Below the pieces are notes generated by a model, which ran no database searches, had not been told where the DNA came from, and saw only the letters and a program-made list of their open reading frames with translations. Shown here one piece after another: positions 21,316 to 26,252 of a stretch of DNA of 64,000 bases. Position 1 is the stretch's first letter; every line of letters starts with the position of its first letter. The position numbers were made by a program, and so were the translations under genes. The stretch is from Leuconostoc rapi (GTDB lineage Bacteria > Bacillota > Bacilli > Lactobacillales > Lactobacillaceae), in the NCBI RefSeq assembly GCF_016908715.1, contig NZ_JAFBEK010000005.1, forward strand, positions 62,001 to 126,000. The letters are read 5' to 3'.

Positions 21316-22812
21316 TTAAACTAAGTATTTAGCCTTAACGTCAGACATTGTTTGTAAGACTTGTGCTTTATCCAATACAACTAGCATCTCTGGTAAGTTT
21401 GGTCCTTGAATTTCATGTGTTGTCGCGATACGAATAGGATTCCATAGATTGCGACCCTTGATCTCAAGATTATTTTGAATTGAGCGAATGGTCGTCATAT
21501 AATCTTCTGCAATTGCTGATTCTGGTAGTGCTGTATAAGCTGATTCCCATGCGGAAAAGACTTTACGTCCATCCTCTGATGTCAAATAATCAACCATTTC
21601 ATCAGTGATATTTCCTAATTCAAAGAATGGTCGACGCACCAATTCAACAACTTCGCGCGTATAAGAAATACCTTCCACACCCGCAACCTTGATCACCTCA
21701 GCAAGCCATTCCTTTTTAGTTTCTGCATCACTTGCGGAAACAAAGTCAGCGTTGACTAATTCTTGAATTAATTGTGGCATCACGTGATCTAAATCACGGC
21801 GCATCCACTGGTTGTTGATCCATTCCAACTTCTTTTGATCAAATTTAGCATTTGCCTTCGATAAACGTGTCTCGTCAAACATTTCTTTAAACGCTTCAAG
21901 CGAGAAAATTTCGTCCTCACCCTTTGGTGACCAACCAAGCAAACCAATAAAGTTTACCATGGCTTGTGGTTGGTAGCCCAATTCATGATATTGTTCGACG
22001 AATTGTAACAGATTTTCATCACGTTTTGATAACTTTTTACCTGTTTCACCGTTAATAATTAACGCCATGTGCCCAAACTTTGGCACATGCCAACCCAGTG
22101 CCTCAAAAATCATGATTTGCTTTGGTGTGTTTGATACATGATCATCACCACGTAGTACATGAGAGATTTTCATCAAATGGTCATCTACCACGACGGCAAA
22201 GTTATAGGTTGGCATCCCATCAGCTTTTTGAATAACCCAATCGCCACCTACTTCTTTAGCACCAATTTCAATATGCCCTTTAACAATATCATCCCAAGCA
22301 TAAACTTTTTCTTCAGGTACACGGAAACGCACAACTGGTTTTAAGCCTTGCGCCTCAAATTCAGCATACTTAGCCTCACGTTCGTCATTCGTTAGACCTT
22401 CATACTCATAAACATAGTGTGGTGCTTGCTTTGCTGCTTGTTGTGCTTCACGCTCAGCGGCAATTTGATCCGTTGTCTTATATGACTTATAGGCAAGCCC
22501 TTTGGCTAACAGCTCGTCAATAAAGGGTTGATAAACACCTTGTTCGTTGCGTTCTGACTGACGATATGGCCCATATTCACCAGGGTTTGCTGGTGATTCA
22601 TCCCAGTCCAAACCAAGCCAAGCTAGGTTGTCCAGTTGTGATTTTTCACCGTCAGCAATGTTACGTGCTGTATCGGTATCTTCAATACGGATAATGAATT
22701 TGCCGTTATAATGACGCGCAAAAAGCCAGTTAAAAATTGCTGTACGTGCATTTCCAATATGTAAGTGGCCCGTTGGTGATGGTGCATAACGAACACGAAT
22801 TTCTTCAGTCAT
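21316..22812 (-). CDS. gltX: Glutamyl-tRNA synthetase
   Basis: 498 residues. Class I synthetase charging tRNA(Glu), and in bacteria lacking GlnRS also tRNA(Gln). Seen: YAPSPTGHLHIGNARTA (HIGH motif 16-20), FIIRIEDTD, and KKLSKRD (KMSKS loop). No Shine-Dalgarno is next to the ATG. AGGAGG at 22853-22858 is 40 nt upstream, separated by a perfect 9-bp hairpin. An in-frame TAA precedes the ATG, so the gene cannot start further upstream. Monocistronic. Confidence 0.97.
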   Translation of the reverse strand: MTEEIRVRYAPSPTGHLHIGNARTAIFNWLFARHYNGKFIIRIEDTDTARNIADGEKSQLDNLAWLGLDWDESPANPGEYGPYRQSERNEQGVYQPFIDELLAKGLAYKSYKTTDQIAAEREAQQAAKQAPHYVYEYEGLTNDEREAKYAEFEAQGLKPVVRFRVPEEKVYAWDDIVKGHIEIGAKEVGGDWVIQKADGMPTYNFAVVVDDHLMKISHVLRGDDHVSNTPKQIMIFEALGWHVPKFGHMALIINGETGKKLSKRDENLLQFVEQYHELGYQPQAMVNFIGLLGWSPKGEDEIFSLEAFKEMFDETRLSKANAKFDQKKLEWINNQWMRRDLDHVMPQLIQELVNADFVSASDAETKKEWLAEVIKVAGVEGISYTREVVELVRRPFFELGNITDEMVDYLTSEDGRKVFSAWESAYTALPESAIAEDYMTTIRSIQNNLEIKGRNLWNPIRIATTHEIQGPNLPEMLVVLDKAQVLQTMSDVKAKYLV

Positions 22813-22858
22813 GTTTTATGACGTGCTTACTCAAACAAAATTAAGCACGTTTCCTCCT
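22813..22858 (-). promoter_or_regulatory. gltX ribosome-binding site split by a hairpin
   Basis: Minus-strand order: AGGAGG (22858-22853), AA, ACGTGCTTA (22850-22842), 12-nt loop, TAAGCACGT (22829-22821), CATAAAAC, ATG. With the 9-bp stem formed, the unpaired spacing from AGGAGG to ATG is 10 nt. Confidence 0.6.
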
Positions 22859-23013
22859 AATTACGCGGTTTTACCGCAATTATTTACATGTTCTATTGTA
22901 CATATTATAACTGTTCATTTCAAATCATTGCGATAACGTGCATAAAAGATTAGACTGATTCATTCATTATTCTTCAGTTAGCTCATTTTTTGATAACTGA
23001 ATTAGGCTCATAA

Positions 23014-23046
23014 TAAAAAAGCACTCAACTGACTTCAAGCGCTTTT
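23014..23046 (-). terminator. Terminator of the secreted-protein/small-protein operon
   Basis: On the minus strand AAAGCGCTTGA pairs with TTGAGTGCTTT (11 bp including three G-U pairs), loop of 6, then TTTATT. Confidence 0.7.
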
Positions 23047-23096
23047 TGCCATGCTTATAACCAATATTTTCATAGGTTAATGAGCTAAAAAATGAA

Positions 23097-23261
23097 TTAT
23101 TTCTTTTGTATTTTTTTAATTACAATAATACTAGTTATTCCAATTACAAAATACAAAATAGTCCACAACCACATTAACCTCGGTAGCTTGTCAAATAATA
23201 GACGGAGTGGATACATTAACACGAAAATAGGTATAAGGACTTGCAATAATTCTTTTTTCAT
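23097..23261 (-). CDS. 54-residue two-helix membrane protein, immunity-like
   Basis: ATG at 23261 with GAGGTGAT 6 nt upstream. It reads MKKELLQVLIPIFVLMYP... and ends KKIQKK. Two hydrophobic segments (about 6-23 and 30-48) are separated by a basic turn (FDKLPRLMW), with a Lys-rich C-terminus. It begins 16 bp after the stop of the frameshifted secreted-protein gene and shares its terminator. Size, topology and position fit a bacteriocin immunity protein, but there is no recognised family match; function is inference. Confidence 0.65.
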   Translation of the reverse strand: MKKELLQVLIPIFVLMYPLRLLFDKLPRLMWLWTILYFVIGITSIIVIKKIQKK

Positions 23262-23277
23262 AAAAGGATCACCTCAA

Positions 23278-24118
23278 TCAATTAGTTTTATAATAGTTTG
23301 GCACATTTCTATTATTGACTGTACGTTGATAAATGCCAATCCAACCATTATGATTTGTGTCAAGTTTTGAAGCAAGATAAGTTCCAGGACTTTTAACCGT
23401 GGCAAGATACCCAAATCCAAAACCAGTTGTCGTACTAACGATGCTTCTCATAGCCGCAGTTGAGACACCGAGAGCAGTTGCTGCGGCAGCTGGCAGTGCA
23501 GCGGCTACTGCGGCTGTCCCAAGTCCCACGACAGCTGTATCAACACTGTACCCAAATGCTCTAGTCCCTACAGCCAAATTCGTGTATCTCCAACCAGTAC
23601 TAACATTTTCAACGCCAATATTACTAGTATTTACATTAAATGTACTTGACTCTGTCTTATAGAGACCTGAATTAGATTCTAGCATTATTTTAGTAACTAT
23701 TAGCTTGCCATCATTATTAACAATAGAAACTGTCTGATCATTTTCTGAATCAACAACCTTAACTCCAGCAATTGATTGGTCATCATTGTTAACTGCTGTT
23801 GTAACTTTAACACCGTCTAACGATTCAGACGTGGCTGTTGTATCAACAGAATCTGCAACCTCATTAAACTCTTTATCTATTGGTGATTGAACAGTGGTCG
23901 CTGTTTTAATCACCTTGATCTCATCATTGTTATGCTTTGAATTACCATTTTCAAGCATAACATTGTTATCAGCCTGCTTTAAAGGTTTAGCATTTAAAGC
24001 ACTGTATCTAGCGTCCGATAGTTTATTAGTATGCGGTCTTATAGAAGTTAGTAACTGTTGTTGCAATAATCCCAGTTACAACTGCTACGCTAGCTAATAC
24101 TGTCATTCCTTTATTCAT
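23278..24118 (-). pseudogene. Secreted protein gene with a frameshift after the signal/anchor peptide
   Basis: ATG at 24118 (AAGGGAAG 4 nt upstream) encodes MNKGMTVLASVAVVTG..., a signal or anchor helix, then stops after 30 codons (TAA). The downstream frame, offset by one base, is open from 24075 to 23278 for about 265 codons and has no usable start of its own (only TTG at 24066 with no ribosome site). One extra base between 24075 and about 24029 would explain it. The body has a polar Asn/Asp/Thr-rich region, then an Ala/Gly-rich hydrophobic stretch (GLGTAAVAAALPAAAATALG) and a tail rich in Asn and Tyr. No known family recognised; it could be a large bacteriocin precursor. Sequencing error or programmed shifting cannot be excluded. 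Confidence 0.6.
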
Positions 24119-24161
24119 GTACTTCCCTTTGAAATTATATTTAATATGCTTCTTAAATATA

Positions 24162-24191
24162 ATTAAATCATGAATGACTGACGCTTGTCAA
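24162..24191 (-). promoter_or_regulatory. Promoter of the secreted-protein operon
   Basis: TTGACA (24186-24191), 18-bp spacer, TTTAAT (24162-24167) on the minus strand. Confidence 0.5.
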
Positions 24192-24219
24192 TTAATTTGT
24201 GAAAATATATACTTTTCAA

Positions 24220-24249
24220 CTATGGAAATATCATATGATATTTCCATAG
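24220..24249. repeat. Perfect 30-bp palindrome
   Basis: Half-site CTATGGAAATATCAT followed directly by its reverse complement. It lies between the tetR stop and the promoter of the secreted-protein operon. No T run follows on the minus strand, so it is a poor terminator; an operator or an mRNA-end hairpin is possible. Confidence 0.65.
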
Positions 24250-24282
24250 GCAAGCTGCTCTTGACACATAGACATCTTAATA

Positions 24283-24870
24283 TCACTGCAAACTCCTAGC
24301 AAAAAAACGAATTTGCTTATTGTAAAATTCGTTTGGTGTCACCAACAAGTTAGGATTGCTAAACCGAATACCGGATATAAAATAGCCAAAATTTAACCAG
24401 ACAAAATTCATCGTAGCAGCTTCCGTATCAATTGTAGCTGCTATTTTTTGTTGACGCTTCATCTCATCAAAGTAGGCCAATAAAATTGTTTTAAATTGAA
24501 TCGGTATATCTTCAACAGCTTTCGCAATGTCCGGTCTTTTGAATGATTCCTGAAAACCCACCACGACGATTTCTTGGTGTCTCAATTGAAATTCTTGATA
24601 TATTTTAGACATCGTTACCAAGTCATTTTCGATATTTCCTGTAACTGAAAAATCATCGAATATTGTTGATAAATCTTGCAAGTGCCTATCAATCACAACA
24701 TCTAAAAGACCTTCTTTATCTTTGAATTTTCTAAAGACTGTGCTCGGATTAACATGAGCAGCCTCAGCTATTTTATTAATTGTTGTCGCCTGATAACCCA
24801 CCTGAATGAGTAAAGACACAAAGGCATTTAAAATCAATTCATAGTTCTTATCTTCATTTTCTTTAGACAT
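24283..24870 (-). CDS. TetR-family transcriptional regulator
   Basis: 195 residues. The N-terminal helix-turn-helix (about 10-55) contains TTINKIAEAAHVNPSTVFRKFKDKEGLL, typical of TetR; the rest is a helical ligand-binding domain. It is divergent from an ABC-2-like exporter, with inverted repeats in the shared promoter, so it probably represses that gene and itself until a toxic ligand binds. AGAGGTG precedes the ATG. The ligand is unknown. Confidence 0.92.
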   Translation of the reverse strand: MSKENEDKNYELILNAFVSLLIQVGYQATTINKIAEAAHVNPSTVFRKFKDKEGLLDVVIDRHLQDLSTIFDDFSVTGNIENDLVTMSKIYQEFQLRHQEIVVVGFQESFKRPDIAKAVEDIPIQFKTILLAYFDEMKRQQKIAATIDTEAATMNFVWLNFGYFISGIRFSNPNLLVTPNEFYNKQIRFFARSLQ

Positions 24871-24941
24871 AGCAACACCTCTTTGTAGTTATATTAACAT
24901 AATATTGTACCAATGACAGTTGCTCTCATACATTTTTATAA

Positions 24942-24961
24942 ATGCAAGCATTCACTTGCAT
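24942..24961. promoter_or_regulatory. Candidate TetR operator
   Basis: ATGCAAG-N6-CTTGCAT is a perfect 7-bp inverted repeat. It overlaps a plausible -35 (TTGCAT, 24956-24961) of the plus-strand promoter (TAAGCT 17 bp on). A second overlapping dyad TTCAC...GTGAA follows (about 24951-24972). Confidence 0.55.
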
Positions 24962-25013
24962 GCACTTGTGAAAAGTGTTAAGCTTTTGTCAGCAAAATAA
25001 AAGGAGAAATAAC

Positions 25014-26252
25014 ATGTCTTTTAAAAAATTTTTACAAAGCAAAGGTGTCATCGGATCTTTGATTATTATATTGTTTTATGGTCTACTCATGGTGGGTGTT
25101 TACTTTTCTGGTTATCAAGCAATTCCCAATAAAGTGGACCAACTTCCCGTTGCTATTGTTAATCAAGATTCTGATAGTCGACCATTGACGACTCAAATGA
25201 AAGATAAGTTACCATTCAAACATATCAAAACCAATCTAACGCTAAGTGAAGCAAAAGCGCAATTAAGAGATCGCAAAGTTTATCTCATTATTAATGTGCC
25301 TGAACATTTCAACAATAACATTAAAGATGTCACGCACAATAGTACCGCTAGTCTCAAATTTTATATTAACTACTCTAATCCAACAACTGTGACAACAACT
25401 ATGGAAACTGCCTCAAAAGCATTGGGTAGTCAAATTCAAAAAAGTGTTTTGTTAAAGCAGGGTCAAGGTATTTTAGCTGCCGCTGAACTCAATCAACTAC
25501 ACAAAGAAGTCACAGAGGCTGTTACAGCTAATCCTGACCAACAAGAAAAAATATTAAAACAAGCAAACACAACAAAAGCTGAGACTGTTGATCAGATTAA
25601 CAGTACTTATGGCAAGATAGCTAACTCATATAAAGACAGTATTATTAAAATCAATCCTGTTCCCTTAGGCATGCATCACAGCATGGCACCATTTTTTCTA
25701 ACCTTATCATTCTATATTGGTTCCATGATTGCTGCGATGTTGATTGTCACAAGTTATAAGTCATTTGCACCATTAATCGGTCGCTGGCGTGCCTATCTAT
25801 ACACTGAAATAACAATTGGCCTCTTATCACTTCTCGCACCATTAATCATCGTGGGCTTGGGTAAATACATGTTGAACTTTAATACCAGTACCTATTGGCA
25901 GCTATGGCTAACACATAGTATTGAATTATTTAGCGCATTAAACGTTAACCTCATTTTTTCCTTAATTTTAGGACAACTTGGTATCATGGTTAACATGCCA
26001 TTTATGCTTATACAGGTTATTTCAGGCGCTGGTATGATACCACAACGTATATTGCCAGATTTCTTTAAGCTAATGAGCTACATCTCGCCTAGTTTCTACG
26101 CGATTCAATCTGATTTTAATATTTTATATGGTGGTAACGGCACACAAACCTTATGGCTACAACTCCTGATGATTGGAATCGTTGCAATCGCACTTCATTT
26201 GGTGATTGTCGCTTTTCAAAAAAATAATTCTGGTATCATCAAGCCGAGTTAA
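25014..26252 (+). CDS. YhgE/Pip-like ABC-2 membrane exporter protein
   Basis: 412 residues from ATG at 25014 (AAAAGGAG upstream; the frame extends to 24975 without a ribosome site). Order: one N-terminal membrane helix (about 14-34), a large extracytoplasmic region with VAIVNQDSDSRPLTTQ and LIINVPEHFNNNI, then about five helices in the C-terminal half. This resembles the ABC2_membrane_3/YhgE-Pip group. Divergent TetR control is common for such exporters. No ATPase gene is adjacent, so an ABC partner would have to be elsewhere. Substrate unknown. Confidence 0.82.
   Translation: MSFKKFLQSKGVIGSLIIILFYGLLMVGVYFSGYQAIPNKVDQLPVAIVNQDSDSRPLTTQMKDKLPFKHIKTNLTLSEAKAQLRDRKVYLIINVPEHFNNNIKDVTHNSTASLKFYINYSNPTTVTTTMETASKALGSQIQKSVLLKQGQGILAAAELNQLHKEVTEAVTANPDQQEKILKQANTTKAETVDQINSTYGKIANSYKDSIIKINPVPLGMHHSMAPFFLTLSFYIGSMIAAMLIVTSYKSFAPLIGRWRAYLYTEITIGLLSLLAPLIIVGLGKYMLNFNTSTYWQLWLTHSIELFSALNVNLIFSLILGQLGIMVNMPFMLIQVISGAGMIPQRILPDFFKLMSYISPSFYAIQSDFNILYGGNGTQTLWLQLLMIGIVAIALHLVIVAFQKNNSGIIKPS

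What the first reader, a model, noticed from the sequence alone, without database searches (positions are those of the whole stretch)
23097..24118. Frameshifted secreted protein plus 54-residue two-helix protein: possible undescribed bacteriocin-like pair
A signal/anchor peptide with a good ribosome site is one base out of frame with a long body that has a polar middle and an Ala/Gly-rich hydrophobic stretch, followed after 16 bp by a small two-helix protein missed by size filters, and a shared terminator. The layout fits a large secreted antimicrobial and its immunity protein. The frame break may be a recent loss, with the immunity gene kept, or an error.
Basis: partly seen in the sequence, partly recalled or inferred. 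Interest (0 to 1): 0.7.

Follow-up and report, generated by a model that had tools for sequence, protein, structure and literature searches.

The report
Broken bacteriocin gene, immunity gene kept
A lactic acid bacterium carries a damaged gene for a secreted protein that probably kills rival bacteria, next to an intact small gene that probably protects against it, and both belong to a family found across related bacteria that the protein databases searched here do not name.

Summary
On the minus strand a signal peptide (from 24118) lies one frame away from a 262-aa body (24066-23281). A 54-aa hydrophobic two-helix protein (23261-23097) follows after 16 bp, then a hairpin. Intact versions exist: genome G015 of the same genus has two pairs, each toxin one open frame. 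The family is in 19 of 395 Lactobacillales genomes (own included); its E. faecium form is on 130 Enterococcus plasmid records. No library model reached its cut-off. Of 35 loci, 18 have an intact secreted protein, all with the small membrane gene; in 17 it is broken, and 16 of these keep the small gene; the reverse was not seen. On related small E. faecium plasmids the pair fills the slot that elsewhere holds a class II bacteriocin plus immunity gene, or bacteriocin 51. Best reading: a Sec-secreted bacteriocin family (precursors about 170-285 aa) with a small membrane immunity protein; here the killer gene is broken and the immunity gene kept. It resembles dysgalacticin/DysI and Bac51 in layout but meets neither the EntV nor the Bac51 model. 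Killing, target and immunity are inferred; assembly error is not excluded.

The parts
24026..24118 (-). 5' piece of the broken gene: start codon and signal peptide, 30 codons, then stops
   Evidence: by eye it begins MNK and ends near an FY as the G015 signal peptides do; ribosome site AAAGGGAAG upstream
23278..24066 (-). 262-aa body of the bacteriocin-like protein, out of frame with the signal peptide
   Evidence: 42% and 40% identical to the two intact G015 proteins
23281..23604 (-). conserved C-terminal domain: YT..AV strand, Ala/Gly-rich hydrophobic helices, PG...A..D.N.NGW.G.Y strand
   Evidence: alignments A3, A4; model with block pLDDT 62-84 from residue 161 on
24029..24066 (-). stretch in which the reading frame breaks
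   Evidence: no run of one base longer than 3
23097..23261 (-). 54-aa two-helix membrane protein, proposed immunity protein
   Evidence: ribosome site GAGGTGAT at 23268-23275
24169..24191 (-). conserved promoter block TTGACAnnCGTnnnTCATTCATG
   Evidence: searched without its first two bases, found in 4 of 19 genomes of the genus (up to 1 mismatch), at these toxin loci or before another secreted-peptide pair; 0 hits with the reversed control pattern
23016..23047 (-). probable terminator hairpin with T-run after the small gene
   Evidence: -14.6 kcal/mol, z -1.94; not listed by the scan

Best explanation
The pair is a decayed member of a bacteriocin family of Lactobacillales. The intact protein is exported by Sec (signal peptide seen in intact copies; export inferred). 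Its roughly 100-aa C-terminal domain, hydrophobic helices flanked by beta strands that end in a D.N.NGW.G.Y motif, acts at the membrane of related competitors (inferred). The small two-helix membrane protein made from the next gene protects the producer, probably by blocking the domain or its receptor in the membrane (inferred). In this genome the killer gene has lost its reading frame just after the signal peptide, so no secreted product is expected, while the immunity gene is intact and probably still protects against producers. The confidence given is for the bacteriocin-plus-immunity reading; that the break is real and not an assembly error I put at about 0.8.
For: Two intact pairs in the same genus. 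Family across the order: 19 of 395 genomes, own included; only the own genome among 398 drawn from the phylum. Small gene next to 18 of 18 intact and 16 of 17 broken toxins, never toxin intact with small gene lost; 16:0 discordance has chance 0.011 if genes break by length (200 and 65 codons assumed), and 1 of 35 small genes lost against 6.8 expected has chance 0.005. Four toxin subtypes (sorted by eye), each with small proteins of its own size: 54-62, 62-81 (one lengthened to 119), 86 and 114-124 aa. In E. faecium plasmid L038 similarity to a class II bacteriocin plasmid (L074) and a bacteriocin 51 plasmid (L077) stops about 150 bp before the toxin and resumes 44-74 bp after the small gene, so the pair lies where they carry their bacteriocin genes (L077 BacA scores 181 bits on NF041453, cut-off 150). 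A plasmid with a lactococcin 972 family gene (L076) shares the upstream side. Similar promoter block before another Sec-leader peptide pair in G014. Domain at the C-terminus of a 799-aa secreted protein of Listeria grandensis, again with a small gene next to it.
Against: No activity has been shown. No hit above the cut-off of any Pfam or NCBIfam model for the toxins scanned. Small genes of lineages with broken toxins are conserved (dN/dS 0-0.24 for the pairs in which both toxins are broken), but toxin remnants are too (0.06-0.12 in four comparisons, 0.65 in G373/G434), so this does not show selection after the loss; G156/G208 (intact/broken) gives about 2 for the small gene. G171 and G008 show that the small gene can also decay. 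Among broken loci alone, per-codon decay predicts about 3 of 17 small genes lost and 1 was (chance 0.13), so retention is not decisive on that count. The rule asked for a hydrophobic ORF, not for homology. The slot evidence comes from a 177-aa enterococcal relative, not from the window. The 71-aa partner in G092 has a weak Pfam hit to the transporter family TauE (E 6e-4, 19.9 bits, cut-off 32.6).
Confidence: 0.85

Rival explanations
1. The gene is intact in the organism and the frame break is an assembly error; the window then holds a working bacteriocin pair. (This rival concerns the break only and agrees with the bacteriocin reading.)
For: One single break in an otherwise open 262-codon frame; draft genome of 24 contigs.
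Against: No run longer than 3 bases near the break; the near relative G005 lost the same gene by deletion and 17 of 35 loci are broken, so loss is common.
Confidence: 0.2
2. The secreted protein is a surface or matrix protein (adhesin-like), and the small membrane protein helps its export or anchoring.
For: Beta-rich middle region in the window model; fusion to repeats with a fibronectin type III hit below its cut-off in L. grandensis.
Against: An export helper should be useless without its client, yet 16 of 17 broken loci keep the small gene; small proteins of different size go with toxin subtypes; bacteriocin slot on plasmids.
Confidence: 0.07
3. Toxin-antitoxin or plasmid-stability pair acting inside the producer, the small gene being the antitoxin.
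For: Plasmid location in enterococci; antitoxin-like retention after toxin loss.
Against: Signal peptide on the toxin; the slot is that of annotated bacteriocins; membrane-type partner. The two ideas overlap, as secreted bacteriocins may also stabilise plasmids.
Confidence: 0.05

Closest known systems
Bacteriocin 51 (BacA, NCBIfam NF041453)
   Same: 144-aa precursor with an N-terminal hydrophobic leader, a 57-aa hydrophobic ORF 20 bp downstream (BacB as the immunity protein is recalled), same slot on related small E. faecium plasmids. Bac51 acts on E. faecium, E. durans and E. hirae and sits on a 6.0-kb plasmid (PMC8532689, passages)
   Different: No sequence match; intact members of this family are mostly 170-285 aa
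Dysgalacticin / DysI, streptococcin A-M57, EntV
   Same: Dysgalacticin: 220-aa Sec-type precursor, disturbs membrane potential, membrane-associated immunity factor DysI (PMC8308785, passages). Grouping EntV with these two is recalled
   Different: EntV model NF058576 gives 12 bits against a cut-off of 130; no conserved cysteines, while EntV needs a disulphide (PMC6606811, passages)
Geobacillin 26 / alicyclobacillin 24
   Same: Sec signal, 238-245 aa, predicted C-terminal transmembrane helix, membrane-associated action (PMC13176240, outline with abstract, passages and section 3.3)
   Different: No Geo26 sequence was at hand; the word immunity does not occur in that paper's main text
Class II bacteriocin with immunity gene on plasmid L074 (layout like the bac43 plasmid pDT1; identity not tested)
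   Same: Same plasmid slot and two-gene cassette (pDT1 layout from PMC11275671, passages)
   Different: 74-aa precursor there; ours are far larger

Membership tests
Sec-secreted bacteriocin with adjacent immunity gene (general kind) | Sec signal peptide on the structural gene | tested here: met
   Hydrophobic N-terminus in all 18 loci called intact, but the calling rule required it; for L. grandensis the rule picked an internal start, the full 799-aa frame begins with a signal peptide; window signal peptide is out of frame. No dedicated signal-peptide predictor was available
Sec-secreted bacteriocin with adjacent immunity gene (general kind) | Small membrane protein gene directly downstream | tested here: met
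   34 of 35 loci
Sec-secreted bacteriocin with adjacent immunity gene (general kind) | Kills related bacteria; partner protects | not testable with these tools
   no assay
Bacteriocin 51 family | Match to NF041453 above its cut-off | tested here: not met
   No NF041453 hit at E<=1 for the toxins scanned: window, two of G015, G092, pA3895, L041, L042, L043, L054; BacA itself scores 181 bits; no BLASTP or hhalign match
EntV / dysgalacticin / SA-M57 | Match to NF058576 (EntV family) above cut-off 130 | tested here: not met
   Among the same toxins only L043 is listed, 12 bits, residues 9-107
EntV / dysgalacticin / SA-M57 | Disulphide-forming cysteine pair (shown for EntV) | tested here: not met
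   13 of 14 proteins have 0 or 1 Cys; one (G015a) has 2
Geobacillin 26 family | Sequence or fold relation to Geo26/Ali24 | tested here: inconclusive
   Ali24 plasmid record not held; no Geo26-type model among NCBIfam hits, but whether such a model is in the library was not established
Class II bacteriocin | Mature peptide under about 10 kDa (recalled) | tested here: not met
   Intact precursors about 170-285 aa, 799 aa in L. grandensis; unknown later processing could change this
Modular polymorphic toxin | Same toxin domain on unrelated N-terminal delivery parts | tested here: inconclusive
   One case, L. grandensis 799-aa protein with repeats

The most novel reading that the evidence does not exclude
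A bacteriocin family without a name in the libraries searched, defined by a C-terminal membrane domain with no PDB match at the sensitivity used. It is used both as a free Sec-secreted killer and as the tip of a large secreted protein, is paired with at least four sizes of immunity protein, and its E. faecium toxin gene sits on 130 Enterococcus plasmid records, called hypothetical or left unannotated in the 60 rows shown. Killer genes decay often while immunity genes stay as shields.
Probability: 0.6. Interest if true: 0.68.

Novelty: new variant of a known kind. Interest (0 to 1): 0.56.

Why it matters
It would give a function to a hypothetical toxin gene found on 130 Enterococcus plasmid records (its partner gene was looked at in four plasmids only) and present, whole or as a remnant, in 7 of 15 genomes of one enterococcal genus group, and to orphan small ORFs in food bacteria that size filters drop. 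The frequent pattern of dead killer and living immunity gene makes the cheater-with-shield idea testable in natural strains, and the variable small proteins give a set for mapping immunity specificity.

Tried and rejected
Family libraries: for the window toxin and small protein Pfam and NCBIfam gave nothing above a cut-off, PHROGs nothing better than E 0.1, PADLOC nothing at E<=0.1; Rfam gave nothing in 22800-25000. PDB sequence search with profile A3: best E 0.084 to ribosomal L10, taken as chance. Fold searches: no PDB or BFVD match with E <= 0.001 for the Trichococcus model, best Z 3.2; for the window model best Z 6.8, over residues 59-147 only; all taken as non-informative. Single-sequence scan of genome contigs: 66 pattern matches, no relative; the profile scan found 13 loci. 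No match in phages or viral contigs. The window chunk 1-24000 has no close plasmid match.

Considered and rejected: programmed frameshift (the intact G015 relatives are one frame; no slippery run); adhesin or TA pair (see rivals). The dN/dS argument for selection after loss was dropped because toxin remnants give similar values. The TetR gene upstream (24283-24870) was not tied to the pair: it is not among the ORFs listed beside the G015 pairs.

Literature: ten searches in an open-access library only. The Bac51, Bac32 and Tedim papers are not held. The Tedim database (76 bacteriocins; nine putative new ones, called bacAS, were found with it in the strains of PMC11008740; passages) may already contain the E. 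faecium plasmid member; I could not check. So 'undescribed' means only: not named in the libraries and records seen here. Passages of PMC4490491, PMC11784074, PMC5702455 and PMC10710834 were also seen and add little.

Full report
OBSERVATION. ATG 24118, preceded by AAAGGGAAG, opens a 30-codon frame with a signal-peptide-like hydrophobic core. The long body, 262 codons from TTG 24066 to the stop at 23278, is in another frame. The 54-aa ORF starts 16 bp after the body stop. A hairpin with a T-run follows (10 of 200 shuffles fold as well, and the scan does not list it). The longest one-base runs around the break are three.

RELATIVES IN THE GENUS. The body finds only itself in its own genome. Of 150 relatives searched, the own genome and three others match. 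G015 has two neighbouring intact genes of 277 and 285 aa (42% and 40% identity), each followed by a small ORF of 57 or 62 aa. G005 keeps the promoter, the start of the signal peptide, a short C-terminal tail and an intact 54-aa gene at 93% identity, with the middle of the toxin deleted. G092, of another family, has a 195-aa gene and a 71-aa partner. The window's small protein is found in 4 of 60 relatives: own, G005, G015 and a decayed copy in G008, in which one search found no toxin.

FAMILY. A profile of the C-terminal domain (A3) hits 19 of 395 genomes of the order, own included, and among 398 genomes drawn from the phylum only the window's own; deeper looks with profile A4 gave 7 of 15 and 4 of 18 genomes in two groups. 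Named hosts are Trichococcus alkaliphilus, Enterococcus durans, E. villorum, E. ratti, other Enterococcus, Carnobacterium jeotgali, Ligilactobacillus animalis and Listeria grandensis. A relative of the G092 protein is on 155 plasmid records, all Enterococcus; a relative of the longer G015 protein on 13. The E. faecium form (177 aa) is on 130 records, 117 of them at 99% identity or more. In the rows shown the genes are called hypothetical protein or are not annotated. Phages and viral contigs gave nothing.

TOXIN AND SMALL GENE STATES. Left out: further identical copies in G126, loci that repeat a genome already counted, a second small match in G384, the decayed orphan of G008, and all other plasmid records, some of which match in two pieces and may be broken. 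For L. grandensis (G287a) the rule picked an internal start; the full frame of 799 aa starts with a signal peptide. Result: 18 intact, all 18 with the small gene; 17 broken, 16 with the small gene (G171 lost it). The reverse state, toxin intact and small gene lost, was not seen. The discordant 16:0 has a chance of 0.011 if genes break in proportion to length (200 and 65 codons assumed), and 1 small gene lost of 35 a chance of 0.005, while the count among broken loci alone (1 of 17) is not significant (0.13). dN/dS of small genes between two broken loci is 0-0.24, but toxin remnants give 0.06-0.12 in four comparisons (0.65 in G373/G434), and the small gene of G156/G208 gives about 2, so I do not use it as proof of selection. 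Toxin subtypes, sorted by eye, and small-protein sizes go together: Leuconostoc-like with 54-62 aa; the WG.W.YT type with 62-81 aa (one lengthened to 119 aa); the type with a Q(H/Y)(R/K)T tail with 114-124 aa; the G133/G147 type with 86 aa.

PLASMID SLOT. The strongest functional clue is on small E. faecium plasmids. With part of L038 (6096 bp, toxin 177 aa plus 68-aa partner) as query, 512 plasmid records share stretches of it. I opened four. In L074 (6173 bp) the slot holds a class II bacteriocin and a bacteriocin immunity protein. In L077 it holds bacteriocin 51 BacA, followed 20 bp later by a 57-aa hydrophobic ORF. L075 has the same 57-aa ORF without a listed BacA frame. In L076 the shared upstream side is followed by a helix-turn-helix gene and then a lactococcin 972 family bacteriocin. 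Alignment of the rotated L038 ends about 150 bp before the toxin and resumes 44-74 bp after the small gene for L074, L075 and L077, at 75-92% identity; for L076 only the upstream side aligns (92%) in the stretch fetched. So the pair behaves as a bacteriocin cassette. L077 BacA scores 181 bits on NF041453, and our toxins share no detected sequence similarity with it.

OTHER CLUES. The promoter block TTGACAnnCGTnnnTCATTCATG (searched without its first two bases) occurs, with up to one mismatch, in 4 of 19 genomes of the genus: at the toxin loci of G000, G005 and G015 (twice), and, with one mismatch, in G014 before another Sec-leader peptide followed by a 122-aa gene. A 122-aa ORF that looks homologous by eye lies beside the G015 pairs; neither has a Pfam or NCBIfam hit. 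In L. grandensis the domain ends a 799-aa protein with a signal peptide and repeats (fibronectin type III hit below its cut-off), again followed by a small membrane gene, with a second stub and its own small gene nearby.

STRUCTURE. The Trichococcus protein models well over its C-terminal domain (block pLDDT 78-95 from residue 101 on; mean 71.6): a strand, four helices, then two strands. The window body gives a weaker model (mean 56.4; blocks 62-84 from residue 161 on) with a similar order, plus a beta-rich middle. No informative PDB or viral match was found. The D.N.NGW.G.Y motif recalls calcium-binding loops; this is recalled and untested.

MECHANISM. Shown: gene order, signal-peptide-like starts, conservation, decay pattern, cassette slot. 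Inferred: export, membrane action, immunity, and that the window allele is dead with the shield kept.

KNOWN KINDS. It works like dysgalacticin with DysI (PMC8308785, passages), EntV (PMC6606811, passages), Bac51 (PMC8532689, passages; the primary paper was not held), and geobacillin 26/alicyclobacillin 24 (PMC13176240, outline with abstract, passages and one section). The EntV and Bac51 models were tested and not met; Geo26 could not be tested. I file it as a new variant of a known kind. The papers seen do not tell whether the E. faecium member is among the putative bacAS bacteriocins of Tedim and colleagues (PMC11008740, passages).

Noticed in passing
L058:1574-2234 (G014): Another Sec-leader peptide, perhaps itself out of frame near its end, with a 122-aa partner and nearly the same promoter block as the window toxin; a 122-aa ORF that looks homologous by eye is at L006:7098-7466. 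Possible second undescribed bacteriocin pair.
   Followed up: partly
L007:6353-8135 (G005): Two ORFs that look by eye like an ABC transporter pair lie between the small gene and gltX in G005 and are absent from the window.
   Followed up: no
L055:3204-5603 and 1946-2395 (Listeria grandensis): Large secreted repeat protein ending in the toxin domain, with a second toxin stub and its own small gene downstream, like a toxin-module array.
   Followed up: partly
L075:102-275 (E. faecium plasmid AP026591): A relative of the bacteriocin 51 plasmid in which the 57-aa partner ORF is intact while no BacA frame of 45 aa or more is listed in the slot: the same dead-killer, living-shield pattern in another family.
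   Followed up: partly
window 24283-26252: TetR-type regulator divergent from a large membrane protein (type not tested), both also beside the pair in G005.
   Followed up: no
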